DNA of 32,500 nucleotides. It comes from Bolinopsis microptera (taxonomy: Eukaryota > Ctenophora > Tentaculata > Lobata > Bolinopsidae). The position numbers and the translations under genes were made by a program. The DNA is taken from contig NC_087073.1 of NCBI RefSeq assembly GCF_026151205.1, positions 9,155,411 through 9,187,910 on the forward strand, read 5' to 3'. Positions 2,641-31,932 of this stretch are shown here, in pieces (positions within the stretch are counted from its first letter, which is position 1; each line of letters begins with the position of its first letter). Below the pieces are notes generated by a model that was not told the DNA's origin, ran no database searches, and worked only from the letters and a program-made list of their open reading frames with translations.

Positions 2641-3410
2641 ATTCATGAAGAGGTCTCCTCCTAGTCGTTGGAGTGGCCTGCATCACACACATCTCTTCTA
2701 CGGCGTAACATGTTCCTCCATTCCACTCGCTTTAGAGCCAACTGTTTTACTGCATCTCTGCTGATGTTATCGACACCTGTAAATTCAGCCGCATCCTCGA
2801 GTACACAGGCCATCCAGCCTTTCCGGGGTCGTCCTCTCAGTCTCTTTCCATAGTTTGGTTTCCAATCCAGTAAGAAATTGGGAAACCGCGTCTCTGGCAT
2901 TCTGACAACATGTCCGTACCACCTTAGTCTAGCCGCACCGATGAAAGTTTCGATAGACTTAATTCCAGCACGCCTGAGAACTTCTTCATTGGAGACATGG
3001 AAGAACCACTTTATCTTCAAGATTCTTCTCAGGGAGGTCAGATGGAAGACCTCAAACCGTTTCATCTGCTTCTTTGTTGTGTTCCACACTTCAGCTCCAT
3101 ATAACAGAATAGTAATAACAGCAGCCTTATAGATACGGATCTTGGTGGGCGTTCTTATAGTTCGACTGTTCCATATCTTCCAAAGCTGATGGAACGCACC
3201 ATTAGCACGCTGGATCCTGATGTCAAGATCTCGGTCAATGGTACCATCCCCACTGATGTTGGCACCAAGATAAACAAAGTTGCTGAACTGTTCAACAGGT
3301 TCTCCCTCCACTGTTAGCTTTATACTGTCTCTTTCGGTGTAAGGTCGCTGGGACGCACACTTGCTGATCGCCATGCATTGTGTCTTTTTAGCGTTGATCT
3401 TTAACCCAGC
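2640..3410 (-). mobile_element. non-LTR retrotransposon, 5'-truncated RT C-terminus
   Basis: The minus strand encodes about 245 residues of the C-terminal part of a LINE-type endonuclease-reverse transcriptase. It opens in the post-catalytic RT motif GLKINAKKTQCMAI (about 3410-3370). The thumb-like block with YLGANISGDG and LLYGAEVW follows. Next come the RLRWYGHVVRMP and GRPRKGWMACVLEDA segments shared by many animal LINE ORF2 C-termini. The frame ends with a TAG at 2661-2663. A short ATGAATGA-type tail follows near 2640-2656, as seen at RTE-like 3' ends. Endonuclease, RT motif A and the YADD core are missing, so this is a dead 5'-truncated insertion. The intact frame suggests it is fairly young. 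RTE or a related clade is likely, but I cannot fix the clade by eye. Confidence 0.88.
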
Positions 3411-8144: not shown

Positions 8145-8500
8145 AATCACTCTACACTCGACTGTCACGTGATTTTTTCAACCCGTTCTCTAGCTGGTCC
8201 TGAACGACTATTCGAAACCCTAACCCGTTAATCTGATCCCAACCCTATAACCCTAACCCAATCCTCAACAAAAGCATATGCTGAAACCCTAACCCTAACG
8301 AGAAATTAGACTAACTTCCTTGTACGGTCATATCACGTGATCGAGACAGTTTTTCGCCAATATCTCGTCAAGGGAGCAATTTAACCTTATGTCATGGTGA
8401 TTCGGAATCAGCTTCCGAAAATACATCGATTGCATGAAGTTGGTATCAACTGTCGGGGGCCCTTTTAGAACAATCTCGAAGATCGACTGTAGAGTGATTT
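8145..8500. mobile_element. inverted-repeat-bounded segment, possible MITE
   Basis: AATCACTCTACA near 8145 is matched inverted by TGTAGAGTGATT near 8487-8500. Read with TCACTCTACA as the terminus, the flanks are TTAA on the left and TTTA on the right. That could be a mutated TTAA duplication, but this is weak. The inside holds the telomere-like tract and two TCACGTGA palindromes. There is no ORF. Confidence 0.4.
8214..8308. repeat. degenerate interstitial CCCTAA repeats
   Basis: Several AACCCTAACCC-type hexamers alternate with decayed versions (CCCAACCCTATAACCCTAACCC) and end AAACCCTAACCCTAACG. The unit matches the metazoan telomere repeat on the C-rich strand. It is too short and imperfect to be a real telomere. 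Confidence 0.7.
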
Positions 8501-17576: not shown

Positions 17577-17999
17577 ACAATAATAATAAATAAACGTGTG
17601 TGCAGTATTAATTCATGTAAAATTTGTCCTTTGATAGTTTGTAATAAAGATTGTGAAGTGAAGAATGTTGTATATAAGATTAAGTGTAAATTATGTGACC
17701 AGCTGTACGTTGGAGAAACCAGTAGGAAAGTACATGCTCGTGTAGGAGAACACTTACGTTACGCTACCTACCCTGCTACCCCTTCTAATGTTAGTCAAGC
17801 TTTTGCCATACATTATTCGAGCTGTCATGAGGGGTTAAATCCCAGTTTAGAAGTAGATATTTTAAGAATTGAACCCAATACTGTCAGAAGAAAGATTTTT
17901 GAAGCGATGTTTATTATTAATCTGAACCCTACAATTAACAAGAGAGAAGAACTGGATACTATTAAACGTTTTATCATAGCTAGTACTGAAGAATTTTAG
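17577..17999 (+). mobile_element. Penelope-like element, GIY-YIG endonuclease domain
   Basis: The frame is open from about 17577 to the TAG at 17997-17999, about 140 residues. It starts with a cysteine cluster (VCSINSCKIC, CNKDC) like the zinc-finger-like linker of endonuclease-bearing Penelope elements. A GIY-YIG fold follows. VVYKIKC stands for the GIY strand and LYVGET for YIG. The conserved Arg lies in SRKVHARVGEHL, and RKIFEAMFI carries the catalytic Glu. NPTIN supplies the usual Asn near the end. In these retroelements the nuclease nicks the target for reverse transcription. The RT domain expected upstream is not seen, so the copy is 5'-truncated or decayed. No ATG begins the frame (GTG at 17598), as expected for an internal fragment. 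Confidence 0.8.
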
Positions 18000-25128: not shown

Positions 25129-25580
25129 GAGAGACTAGATAGTCCGGATAATTCAGTGTCAAGAGTCTGAATAGTTCAGTGTGAGAGTCCGGATAGTCCA
25201 GTGGGAGAGTCCGGATAGTCCAGTGTGAGAGTCCGAATAGTCCAGTGTGAGAGTCCGGATAGTCCAGTGTGAGAGTCCGGATAGTCCAGTGTGAGAGTCC
25301 GGATAGTTCAGTGCGAGAGTCCGGATAGTTCAGTGTGAGAGTCCGGTTAGTTCAGTGTGAGAGTCCGGATAGTTCAGTGTGAGAGTCCGGATAGTTCAGT
25401 GTGAGAGTCCGGTTAGTTCAGTGTGAGAGTCCGGATAGTTCAGTGTGAGAGTCCGGATAGTTCAGTGTGAGAGTCCGGATAGTTCAGTGTGAGAGTCCGG
25501 TTAGTTCAGTGTGAGAGTCCGGATAGTTCAGTGTGAGAGTCCGGTTAGTTCAGTGTGAGAGTCCGGATAGTCCAGTGTGG
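25129..25580. repeat. 22-bp minisatellite, about 20 units
   Basis: The unit is AGTCCGGATAGTTCAGTGTGAG and the register is kept exactly throughout. Variant units (GGATAGTCC, GGATAGTTC, GGTTAGTTC) are grouped. TCC forms dominate the left and right edges, while TTC forms with interspersed GGTTAG fill the middle. This is the pattern expected from local unequal exchange. Confidence 0.97.
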
Positions 25581-26249: not shown

Positions 26250-26252
26250 TCT

Positions 26253-27394
26253 TAGTACAGGGAAATCCGTCTGAAAAAATCGATCTGCTGACACACGAAG
26301 CTTTCAGAGGATTTTTGACGTTTTTGAGTTCCATTAGGTGCCCTTTATGGCTGACCAACTTTTCCAAACTTTTCCACGTGGCTTAAGGCCACTTTTTGCC
26401 ACTTTACCACTTTTTACCACCTTTCTTGTTTGTCGAATATCTTTAGTTGTGAACATCGTAAAAGGTTGCGAATCAATCGAGTGTGTTCATATTATCAGGA
26501 AGAAAAACTTTTGTCCTAACAATTTTTACGTCAGATAATAAGTTAATTGGATAATTATCAATTAACCAATTAGCAAAATTCTAAAATTTTTTTATTGGCT
26601 AAAAATGATCGGAATAGCTTAAAACACGGAGAAAAGTAGTTTTTAGAAAAAATTTGAAAATTTTTCACTCACATTTTTTTTTCGAGACTTCGAAAAATTT
26701 CGAAAATTCAAAATATTTTTTTCTGCCAAAAGTGATCAAATTGCATGAAACGCGGAGAAAAATGATTTTCAAAAAAAACTTAGTCAATTTTTCGTTTCAA
26801 GAATACTTAAATCACCAATATTTGTAGTTGGAGTTAAGTAAATCTCGGCAGATTTTAGTAATAATCAGGAATTACTAACTCTAAGTGGAAAGGTCTGAAA
26901 CTGAAAAACGTTAAGTTTAACCATACGATCGTGATGTAAGAGTTTCATAACTAATTACAATACAGCCTTATCGATTTTCACAGAAACTGCACCAATGGCA
27001 CAGTCAAGATCGAAACGATAGCCTGCTGTACTGTCATTTTATTGATTTCAATGATGAATCAGTGGGGTTAAGATAATCACATTTGTAATAAATAAAACCT
27101 CTCTGTACCGTCAATTGTGCTAATCTAAACCGGCCTACCTGTATTACCAGACCTCTTCTTTTCCTCAACAATCAAACCGAGTTGTTCATATCGCATTTGG
27201 TGGGTGATGTAAACTAAGTAGTAATACATATCGAGCTATATTCAATCACAATACGACACAGTACGTGTATATTATATGGCTCTTAATGAGGTTTATGAAA
27301 CGCTTTATACCGGTATAGAGAGGTTTTACAGTTTATCACGAAAACGTCTACTTGGTCTCATGGCCCATTTACAGTTCGAAGAAGGGCAAGAACA
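26253..27394 (+). repeat. left arm of long inverted repeat
   Basis: It contains very A/T-rich segments rich in AAATTTTT and TTCGAAAAAT. Single-base differences from the right arm include a TCTGCC/TCCGCC difference near 26732 and GAGTTAAG/GAGTTTAG near 26832. The inner 120 bp are clearly more diverged from the other arm. Confidence 0.85.
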
Positions 27395-28003
27395 GATCAG
27401 GGAAACTGAGGAACAGCCAGGTCCAGGAAGCAAGTGTAAATACACCTTCCAACATCTACTGTAACTGTTTTGTATTGTACTGCATACCGCTTCATTTGCG
27501 GGATACCTCAAATCACCCCCATATGTCAGGGTCGGCTAAGAGTAAAATCAACAAGGGTAACATACGGGAAAGGGTAAGATTTAGATACGAGTACAGTGTC
27601 GGGCAAGGGGTAGTAAAGAACCGGTAATAATTAATTCAGTGAAATGTTCCACGAGAGTCAGGATATTTTGGAAATTGCTAATAGAGACAGATCCTGATCA
27701 GGAAGGATTGTTAATGTTATTGAGGATGTTGATTTGAAATCCGGACGTCGTGAAGTAAAAATACAGGTTCTTCCCGCAGAATATTCGGGGCCCATGATGA
27801 TCAGCTCGGGATTAATGTGGGACAGATCGAAGACTGACAACTGAACCCAATTGAACCTAGTTCCCACTAACCAATCAGCTTAATTGGTTAGGGTTAGGGT
27901 TAGGGTTATGATTAGGGTTAGGGTTAGGGTTAGGGTTAGAGTTAGGGTTAATCAGTTGTCCGGTAGCCCGCTCTTGCGAGTTGACATTCTAAGCTTTTTG
28001 GTC
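27395..28003. other. unique centre of the palindrome
   Basis: The centre holds decayed coding-like sequence. One plus frame around 27655-27842 reads ESQDILEIANRD, a stop, then GRIVNVIEDVDLKSGRREVK and IQVLPAEYSG. This looks like a broken protein fragment but matches no family I can name. The TTAGGG array follows at its right side. Confidence 0.45.
27887..27952 (+). repeat. interstitial TTAGGG array
   Basis: About ten hexamers, mostly perfect TTAGGG with TTATGA and TTAGAG variants. A small inverted repeat (ACCAAT...ATTGGT, about 27870-27888) precedes it. It lies in the spacer of the 2.9-kb inverted repeat. Confidence 0.92.
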
Positions 28004-29183
28004 TTTTCTTGCCTTCTTTGAGCTGTCAAAGAGCCATGAGACCAAGTAGACATTTTCGTGATAAACTGTAAAACCTCTCCATATCGGGCCTCTCACGGGA
28101 GAAACGAGAAGTGTACGGTATAGAACATTTCATATACCTCATTAAGGGCCATAATATAATATACACGTGTTGCATTGTGTCGTATTGTGATCGAATATAG
28201 CTCGATATGTATTACTACTTAGTTTACATCACCCACCAAATGCGATATGAACAACTCGGTTTGATTGTTGAGGAAAAGAAGAGGTCTGGTAATACAGGTA
28301 GGCCGGTTTAGATTAGCACAATTAACGGTACAGAGAGGTTTTATTTATTACAAATGTGATTATCTTAACCCCACTGATTCATCATTGAAATCAATAAAAT
28401 GACAGTACAGCAGGCTATCGTTTCGATCTTGACTGTGCCATTGGTGCAGTTTCTGTGAAAATCGATAAGGCTGTATTGTAATTAGTTATGAAACTCTTAT
28501 ATCACGATCGTATGGTTAAACTTAACGTTTTTCAGTTTCAGACCTTTCCACTTAGAGTTAGTAATTCCTGATTATTACTAAAATCTGCCGAGATTTACTA
28601 AACTCCAACTACAAATATTGGTGATTTAAGTATTCTTGAAACGAAAAATTGACTAAGTTTTTTTTGAAAATCATTTTTCTCCGCGTTTCATGCAATTTGA
28701 TCACTTTTGGCGGAAAAAAATATTTTGAATTTTCGAAATTTTTCGAAGTCTCGAAAAAAAAATGTGAGTGAAAAATTTTCAAATTTTTTCTAAAAACTAC
28801 TTTTCTCCGTGTTTTAAGCTATTCCGATCATTTTTAGCCAATAAAAAAATTTTAGAATTTTGCTAATTGGTTAATTGATAATTATCCAATTAACTTATTA
28901 TCTGACGTAAAAATTGTTAGGACAAAAGTTTTTCTTCCTGATAATATGAACACACTCGATTGATTCGCAACCTTTTACGATGTTCACAACTAAAGATATT
29001 CGACAAACAAGAAAGGTGGTAAAAAGTGGTAAAGTGGCAAAAAGTGGCCTTAAGCCACGTGGAAAAGTTTGGAAAAGTTGGTCAGCCATAAAGGGCACCT
29101 AATGGAACTCAAAAACGTCAAAAATCCTCTGAAAGCTTCGTGTGTCAGCAGATCGATTTTTTCAGACGGATTTCCCTGTACTA
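28004..29183 (-). repeat. right arm of long inverted repeat
   Basis: It is the inverted copy of the left arm. Relative to the left arm it carries about 34 extra bases near 28080-28115 (ATATCGGGCCTCTCACGGGA and following). Either the right arm gained them or the left arm lost them. Confidence 0.85.
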
Positions 29184-29186
29184 TCT

Positions 29187-31283: not shown

Positions 31284-31367
31284 GCTACAGTGGCTGTGTG
31301 TCTCATTAATTCACGCACTTCGTAGTTAGATGATACTTCACTGCTCCTGGAGTTGTATTGTGGAGTT

Positions 31368-31932
31368 GTAGTGGACTGTAAAAGTAGGTGGATTTGTAGT
31401 GGACTGTAAAAGTAGGTGGGTTTGTAGTGGACTGTAAAAGTAGGTGGATTTGTAGTGGACTGTAAAAGTAAGTGGGTTTGTAGTGGACTGTAAAAGTAGG
31501 TGAATTTGTAGTGGACTGTAAAAGTAGGTGGGTTTGTAGTGGACTGTAAAAGTAGGTGGATTTGTAGTGGACTGTAAAAGTAAGTGGGTTTGTAGTGGAC
31601 TGTAAAAGTAATTGGATTTGTAGTGGTCTGTAAAAGTAGGTGGATTTGTAGTGGACTGTAAAAGTAGGTGGATTTGTAGTGGACTGTAAAAGTAGGTGGG
31701 TTTGTAGTGGACTGTAAAATTAGGTGGATTTTTAGTGGACTGTAAAAGTAGGTGGGTTTGTAGTGGACTGTGAAAGTAGGTGAATTTGTAGTGGTCTGTA
31801 AAAGTAGGTGGATTTGTAGTGGACTGTAAAAGTAGGTGGATTTGTAGTGGACTGTAAAAATGTGTGAATATGTCGTGGACTGTAAAGGTATGTTGATTTG
31901 TAGTGGACACGGTAAAAGTATGTGGAGGTAAG
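31368..31932. repeat. 28-bp minisatellite, about 20 units
   Basis: The unit is GTAGTGGACTGTAAAAGTAGGTGGATTT. Starts step exactly 28 bp from 31368 to 31900, with degenerate units trailing to about 31970. Since 28 is not a multiple of three and the unit lacks stops when read on the minus strand, long repetitive frames arise there. These are 253 codons at 31259-32020 and 190 codons in an overlapping frame. The apparent proteins (repeats of YFYSPLQ, HLLLQST, PPTFTVHYK) are the same unit in three registers. I treat them as a by-product, not genes. Confidence 0.95.

What the first reader, a model, noticed from the sequence alone, without database searches (positions are those of the whole stretch)
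26253..29183. 2.9-kb long-TIR element with telomeric repeats in its centre
Arms ~1.15 kb long are near-identical outside and diverged inside. The spacer carries a TTAGGG array plus broken coding-like sequence. Outer homogeneity with inner divergence suggests gene conversion spreading from the ends, or selection on the ends for transposition. TTAGGG may be fill-in at a former break, or an internal component of the element. I know of no described family with this combination.
Basis: partly seen in the sequence, partly recalled or inferred. Interest (0 to 1): 0.72.

Follow-up and report, generated by a model that had tools for sequence, protein, structure and literature searches.

The report
Foldback transposon carrying a telomere-repeat MITE
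This is one copy of a many-copy, gene-less jumping element with long mirror-image ends; its telomere-like TTAGGG stretch is the core of a second, smaller jumping element that landed inside an ancestor and has since been copied along with it.

Summary
Window 26253-29183 is a 2,931-bp element with ~1.15-kb inverted arms and a 3-bp flanking duplication (TCT). It belongs to a dispersed family: two terminus variants match 131 and 198 times genome-wide, controls 0. Of 31 held two-ended copies, 29 have identical 3-bp flanks. Of 32 tested against held DNA, four have paralogous empty sites with one target copy. No coding domain and no autonomous partner were found.

Arms are homogenised within copies: 0.58% L-R divergence against 2.1% between copies in the outer ~1 kb, ending abruptly near 1,010 bp (21 copies). 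This supports intra-element conversion; Galileo is a precedent.

TTAGGG is neither fill-in at this locus nor original to the host. It is the core of a second MITE family (terminal motif 520 matches). The same junctions recur in every held composite. Genome-wide, 42 places match the occupied left junction and 80 the unoccupied one. Stand-alone array-bearing MITEs exist, one of four with a perfect 8-bp duplication. It is a composite of two known kinds; both superfamilies are unassigned.

The parts
26250..26252 (.). left 3-bp target-site duplication TCT
26253..27262 (+). left arm, outer part, homogenised with the right arm within copies; starts TAGTACAGGGAAATCCGTC
   Evidence: the inner edge (~1,010 bp) is approximate
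27263..27402 (+). left arm, inner part; diverged from the right arm, with side-specific states shared across copies
   Evidence: L-R 11-15% and more at the inner end; L-L 0.9-6%, R-R 2.4-7.3%
27403..27835 (.). non-coding spacer of the host element
   Evidence: the spacer query matches elsewhere in the genome (40 candidates scored)
27836..27968 (+). nested MITE remnant: GACAACTGAACCCAATT... to ...CAGTTGTCCGGTAGCC; left tip missing, right arm partly deleted in this copy
27886..27950 (+). TTAGGG (GGTTAG) array inside the nested MITE
27969..28011 (.). rest of the host spacer
28012..28173 (-). right arm, inner part; diverged, carries a ~31-bp stretch absent from the left arm of this copy
28174..29183 (-). 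right arm, outer part; ends CCCTGTACTA
29184..29186 (.). right 3-bp target-site duplication TCT

Best explanation
A non-autonomous, foldback-like DNA transposon family with long inverted arms and 3-bp target duplications, presumably moved in trans by an unidentified transposase (inferred). An ancestral copy received an insertion of a different, short MITE whose core is a TTAGGG array. That composite then multiplied as a subfamily, so the array is now internal cargo whose unit number varies. The two outer arms of each copy are repeatedly homogenised with each other, most likely by gene conversion between arms during break or gap repair, or by mismatch repair of a folded-back stem (pathway inferred). 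Homogenisation stops where the arms stop being collinear, about 1,010 bp in. Shown: copy number, ends, target duplications, empty sites, a shared nesting junction in all held composites, stand-alone MITEs, arm pattern. Inferred: transposase in trans, a single entry of the MITE, the repair pathway.
For: Terminus matches 66+65 (up to 1 mismatch, control 0/0) and variant terminus 106+92 (exact, control 0/0). 3-bp flanks identical in 29 of 31 two-ended copies and in L053. Of 32 joined flanks compared with held DNA, four (L010, L011, L032, L033) align across the joint to a repeat copy 81-91% identical that has no element and one 3-bp target. MITE terminal motif 261+259 matches, control 0/1. Of 9 fetched MITE copies, 5 have a perfect 8-bp duplication, 2 match at 7 of 8 bases, 2 show none (best of 25 offsets); 4 of the 9 carry the array, and on the array side these are 54-58 of 58 identical to the nested segment, against 37-38 of 58 for two array-free ones. 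All 30 held places with the motif inside the host spacer show the same flanks (the window shows only the left one). Occupied left junction: 42 places, up to 2 mismatches; unoccupied: 80, up to 3 mismatches; 41 of 75 array contexts lie within 3 kb of an occupied junction, 34 do not. Arms, 21 copies: within-copy 0.58%, LL 2.08%, RR 2.07%, LR 2.08%; 0 of 20,000 permutations as low; own partner nearest or tied for 34 of 42 arms; states private to one copy: outer 42 on both arms vs 127 on one, inner 0 vs 60.
Against: No autonomous copy or transposase found; the 8,036-bp copy and the sampled centre of the 10.8-kb pair hold LINEs. 8 of 42 arms have a closer relative in another copy, so exchange between copies or unequal drift also occurs. 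Two small copies lack matching 3-bp flanks (L042, L043). Only 1 of the 4 array-bearing stand-alone MITEs has a perfect 8-bp duplication; two match at 7 of 8 and one (L044) shows none. The nested MITE's left tip and an 8-bp duplication are absent in the host, so its entry was imprecise or has eroded. The junction pattern cannot reveal other entry sites, so a single entry rests on the held copies, which were chosen by likeness to the window. Raw reads were not available.
Confidence: 0.87

Rival explanations
1. TTAGGG was added by telomerase or end-filling at a double-strand break inside the element (the usual explanation of short interstitial telomeric arrays).
For: The host-side left junction is imprecise. 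Short interstitial telomeric arrays in primates and rodents are attributed to break repair (PMC7215372, start of abstract in the listing; PMC8537989, passages; the latter also concludes that transposons did not spread the TERC-linked arrays it studied). Other TTAGGG arrays are common in this genome, and nothing here tells how the MITE first gained its array.
Against: The array is bounded on both sides by MITE sequence that also occurs outside the host, in some copies with its own tips and an 8-bp duplication.
Confidence: 0.05
2. Arm identity reflects recent birth of each copy from masters with identical arms, without continuing conversion (not wholly exclusive of the best explanation).
For: Low within-copy divergence; most private states (127 of 169) are on one arm only, as expected after birth.
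Against: 42 private states are on both arms of one copy, spread over 15 of 21 copies, and L-L equals L-R between copies, so arms were equalised in many lineages; the inner arms of the same copies keep side-specific states. Birth by re-copying one arm would itself be a homogenising event.
Confidence: 0.15
3. Selection on the ends for transposase binding keeps the arms alike.
For: Both tips are of the same variant in each of the 31 two-ended copies (ends printed).
Against: Between-copy divergence in the first 120 alignment columns is 3.5-3.7%, among the highest of the outer arm, while within-copy divergence there is 0.2-1.4%.
Confidence: 0.04
4. Assembly artefact (false palindrome or misjoin).
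For: Raw reads were not available.
Against: 31 two-ended copies at different places, 29 with identical 3-bp flanks, and four empty sites.
Confidence: 0.01

Closest known systems
Galileo (Foldback-like, P superfamily, Drosophila)
   Same: Long inverted arms up to 1.2 kb; in two D. buzzatii copies the arms are >99% identical within a copy and ~7% divergent between copies (PMC2775673, passages; two other copies there are chimeric, ~6% within); 98-100% identity between the arms of a copy and the proposal that long arms attract conversion (PMC3573991, passages).
   Different: 7-bp target duplications in Galileo against 3 bp here; Galileo has transposase-bearing copies, none found here. Sequences were not compared.
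Tetris (foldback element, D. virilis)
   Same: Long arms, non-coding variable middle, no autonomous partner found, tandem repeats carried by the element, a smaller relative sharing the tips (PMC4079207, passages).
   Different: 8-10 bp target duplications; its tandem repeats are ~220 bp and lie in the arms, while here the array is a hexamer in a nested MITE in the middle.
Miniature inverted-repeat transposable elements (MITEs) with an internal microsatellite (kind named from recall)
   Same: The nested family: small copies of roughly 100-300 bp, inverted ends, 8-bp duplications in most fetched copies, no coding frame seen, array of variable length.
   Different: The core is the canonical animal telomere hexamer; superfamily not assigned.
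Short interstitial telomeric sequences (ITS)
   Same: Short internal TTAGGG array of variable length.
   Different: ITS are mostly ascribed to break repair; here the array is transposon cargo. A review names transposition by mobile elements only as a possible mechanism (PMC6410037, passages).

Membership tests
Foldback-like DNA transposon (structural class) | long terminal inverted repeats, several hundred bp or more | tested here: met
   1,008 nt near-identical plus ~140 diverged bp in the window; L009 arms aligned over 1,158 columns at 98.8%
Foldback-like DNA transposon (structural class) | multi-copy, flanked by target-site duplications, with empty sites | tested here: met
   29 of 31 copies; empty sites for 4 of 32 tested against held DNA
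Galileo / P superfamily | 7-bp target duplication (reported for Galileo) | tested here: not met
   the duplication is 3 bp
Galileo / P superfamily | THAP/P-type transposase in autonomous copies | not tested
   no autonomous copy found; no search for this domain was made
CACTA/EnSpm | termini beginning CACT (from recall) | tested here: not met
   termini are TAGTACAG
CACTA/EnSpm | 3-bp target duplication (from recall) | tested here: met
CACTA/EnSpm | Transposase_21 in the genome | tested here: inconclusive
   PF02992: no match, but none of the 14 control genomes rang either
PIF/Harbinger | 3-bp duplication of the type TWA (from recall) | tested here: not met
   4 of the 30 duplications listed fit TWA (counted by eye); PF13359 was asked for but not answered
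MITE (nested element) | short, inverted ends, fixed-length target duplication, multi-copy | tested here: met
   520 terminal-motif matches; 8-bp duplication perfect in 5 of 9 fetched copies, 7 of 8 bases in 2, none in 2
Break-repair interstitial telomeric sequence | array inserted directly at a break in otherwise unchanged sequence | tested here: not met
   the array is flanked by MITE sequence that exists elsewhere; about 12 bases of the array-free relatives are replaced

The most novel reading that the evidence does not exclude
In this genome DNA transposons are a regular vehicle of telomere-like hexamer arrays: more than one small dispersed family carries TTAGGG/TCAGGG cores and can pass them on by nesting in larger elements, and the array may be kept because it does something for the element, for example by binding a telomere-repeat protein or by promoting the repair that homogenises the arms.
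Probability: 0.1. Interest if true: 0.75.

Novelty: new variant of a known kind. Interest (0 to 1): 0.42.

Why it matters
It gives a sequence-level case of an interstitial telomeric array spread by DNA transposition, which a review held here lists only as a possibility (PMC6410037, passages) and which a study of TERC-linked vertebrate arrays argued against for its loci (PMC8537989, passages). The carrier, the nesting junction, unoccupied relatives and stand-alone carriers are all visible. It also gives a natural measurement of arm homogenisation within elements, with a sharp boundary. Six paper searches on telomeric repeats in mobile elements showed no title or abstract start describing a MITE with a TTAGGG core; they cover only open-licence PMC papers, and three listings were cut (20 of 21, 15 of 18 and 12 of 39 shown). 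The organism was not identified.

Tried and rejected
Autonomous partner: the 8,036-bp copy (L040+L021) holds a nested LINE with an RT-like reading frame (LINE reading is my own); 2 kb from the centre of the 10.8-kb pair on C5 hold another LINE (L054); the 4,421-bp copy L053 has no array, has arms that pair over ~1.5 kb at 97%, and has a GA-rich insert near its right end. PF02992 gave nothing, with silent controls. PF13359 and PF00115 (the latter to place the organism) did not complete. A search for papers on 3-bp-duplication superfamilies found none.

Coding content of the spacer: not supported. Telomere at contig ends: none of the 5 contig ends looked at (200 bp each) shows TTAGGG, so whether TTAGGG is this organism's telomere repeat is not settled. 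Selection on the ends: disfavoured.

Rows dropped: L035, L036, L037 and L038 lack one or both recognisable ends and are not among the 31. The arm analysis used 21 of the 31, leaving out L022, L027, L029, L030, L031, L034, L039, L041, L042 and L043 (interrupted or deleted arms, or array-free; L022 only for a spacer deletion that would not have mattered). Three of the four array-free copies among the 31 (L041, L042, L043) were fetched because of their unusual size, and the rest by likeness to the window, so 27 of 31 is not a frequency. The junction counts are better, but they allow 2 and 3 mismatches, miss eroded copies, and were not each checked to lie between host tips. In the 34 array contexts away from junctions, C2:8787218 lies in a spacer match and is probably a composite too.

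Full report
Observation. The window lies in a 264.65-Mb genome of 232 contigs, on contig C2. The element is exactly 26253-29183, flanked by TCT on both sides.

Copies. A search with the left arm and its flank gave 41 matches, with only 40 of 1,394 first-look candidates scored, so this is a lower bound. The 19-bp terminus matched 66 times forward and 65 reverse with at most one mismatch, and never read backwards. A second terminus variant, TAGTACAGACAGATCCGTC, matched exactly 106 and 92 times (control 0/0). Of 31 held copies with both ends, 29 have identical 3-bp flanks; the exceptions are the 1,744-bp L042 and the 898-bp L043. The 30 duplications listed (these 29 and L053) comprise 20 different words, A/T-rich but without a fixed motif. 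Of 32 joined flanks compared with the DNA held, four (L010, L011, L032, L033) align across the joint to a repeat copy, 81-91% identical, that lacks the element and has one copy of the 3-bp target. Insertion by transposition with a 3-bp target duplication is therefore well supported.

No genes. No ORF of 100 aa or more with a usual start lies in the element, and the 9 of 12 spacer segments scanned have no Pfam domain above threshold. Two of the long copies are long because of LINEs inside them. The mover is inferred, not seen.

Arms. In 21 copies the outer 960 bp differ by 0.58% on average between the two arms of a copy; between copies L-L, R-R and L-R all differ by about 2.1%. No random re-pairing of 20,000 is as low. 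Own partner is nearest or tied nearest for 34 of 42 arms; it is not for 8 (one arm each of L011 and L012, both arms of L018, L025 and L026). In the outer arm 42 states private to one copy are present on both its arms and 127 on one arm only; in the inner zone 0 and 60. From about 1,015 bp inward the within-copy difference rises to 11% and more and equals the between-copy L-R difference, while L-L (0.9-6%) and R-R (2.4-7.3%) are lower. So the outer arms evolve in concert within copies, and the inner arms do not. There is no gradient from the tips; the zone ends where short indels break collinearity. Conversion between arms, by break or gap repair or in a folded stem, is the simplest mechanism; which of these is not shown. 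Galileo shows like within-copy identity (PMC2775673, passages; PMC3573991, passages).

The array. An alignment of 25 copies of 2.5-3.3 kb shows that the array lies within a segment that stands in place of about 12 bp in the array-free relatives L039 and L041. The segment is bounded by GACAACTGAACCCAATT and its reverse complement (the right one is deleted in the window copy). That motif occurs 261+259 times in the genome with at most one mismatch (control 0/1), so two per composite account for at most about 84 of 520. Nine places fetched show a small family with tips GGGTGRC... and ...GGTAGCC. Five have a perfect 8-bp duplication, two match at 7 of 8 bases, two show none, taking the best of 25 offsets. 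Four of the nine (L044, L045, L047, L048) carry TTAGGG-type arrays in the same internal setting, 54 to 58 of 58 bases identical on the array side to the nested segment; of these four only L047 has a perfect duplication. The array thus came in with this MITE.

One entry. All 30 held places with the motif in the host spacer show the same flanks. Genome-wide the occupied left junction is found at 42 places and the unoccupied one at 80. The simplest reading is one entry followed by multiplication of the composite; a junction pattern cannot by itself exclude other entries. The array context is found 75 times, 41 within 3 kb of an occupied junction and 34 elsewhere. The array has 4 to 19 exact TTAGGG units in the 27 array-bearing held copies. 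The MITE's left tip and its duplication are missing at the host junction, so the entry was imprecise or has eroded.

Wider setting. Perfect five-unit TTAGGG words are frequent in this genome (1,932+1,756 overlapping matches). The first 100 listed places, all on C1, fall into 15 clusters by my reading, 3 of them at composites. Left flanks were fetched for 10 of the other 12. Four of these 10 (L061, L065, L066, L069) share another dispersed flank with its own inverted repeat. Telomere-like hexamers thus appear in more than one dispersed family here. Five contig ends show no TTAGGG, so the telomere repeat of the organism is not established, nor is the organism.

Classification. Structurally this is a foldback-like, non-autonomous DNA transposon. 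The 3-bp duplication with TAGTACAG tips fits neither Galileo (7 bp), nor the CACT tips of CACTA, nor the TWA target of PIF/Harbinger (the last two criteria from recall). The superfamily stays open.

Verdict. A real and well-formed composite of two ordinary kinds of mobile element. The unusual point is that a canonical telomere hexamer array is transposon cargo, passed from a MITE to a larger element and multiplied with it.

Noticed in passing
L061, L065, L066, L069 (C1 arrays): Four of ten other TTAGGG arrays on C1 share a dispersed left flank with CGACAATTGACCCCCC and an inverted partner: probably a second small family with telomere-like hexamers.
   Followed up: partly
L062, L063, L064, L068: TTAGGG arrays that pass directly into CCCTGA (TCAGGG) or CCCAAC hexamer arrays.
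   Followed up: no
window 8286-8298; L017:6499; L026:1429-1489; L023:6893: Further short TTAGGG-like cores in what look like other dispersed repeats.
   Followed up: no
window 2661-3374 (-): ORF with the Pfam domain DUF6451 (E 1.3e-8); it looks like the C-terminal part of a LINE reverse transcriptase (LINE reading is my own).
   Followed up: partly
window 17598-17999 (+): ORF with a weak GIY-YIG match below the curated cut-off; resembles a Penelope-like endonuclease (Penelope reading is my own).
   Followed up: partly
window 25141-25579 and 31360-31926: Two minisatellites, 22-bp unit x 19.9 and 28-bp unit x 20.2.
   Followed up: no
C9:30760-33725 and C9:38619-41584: Two composite copies of equal length, about 5 kb apart near the start of contig C9, with spacers in opposite orientation: possibly an inverted segmental duplication.
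   Followed up: no
L013: A copy with a third tip variant (TAGTACAGACAAATCCGTC) on both ends and no mismatch between its outer arms over 961 compared columns.
   Followed up: partly
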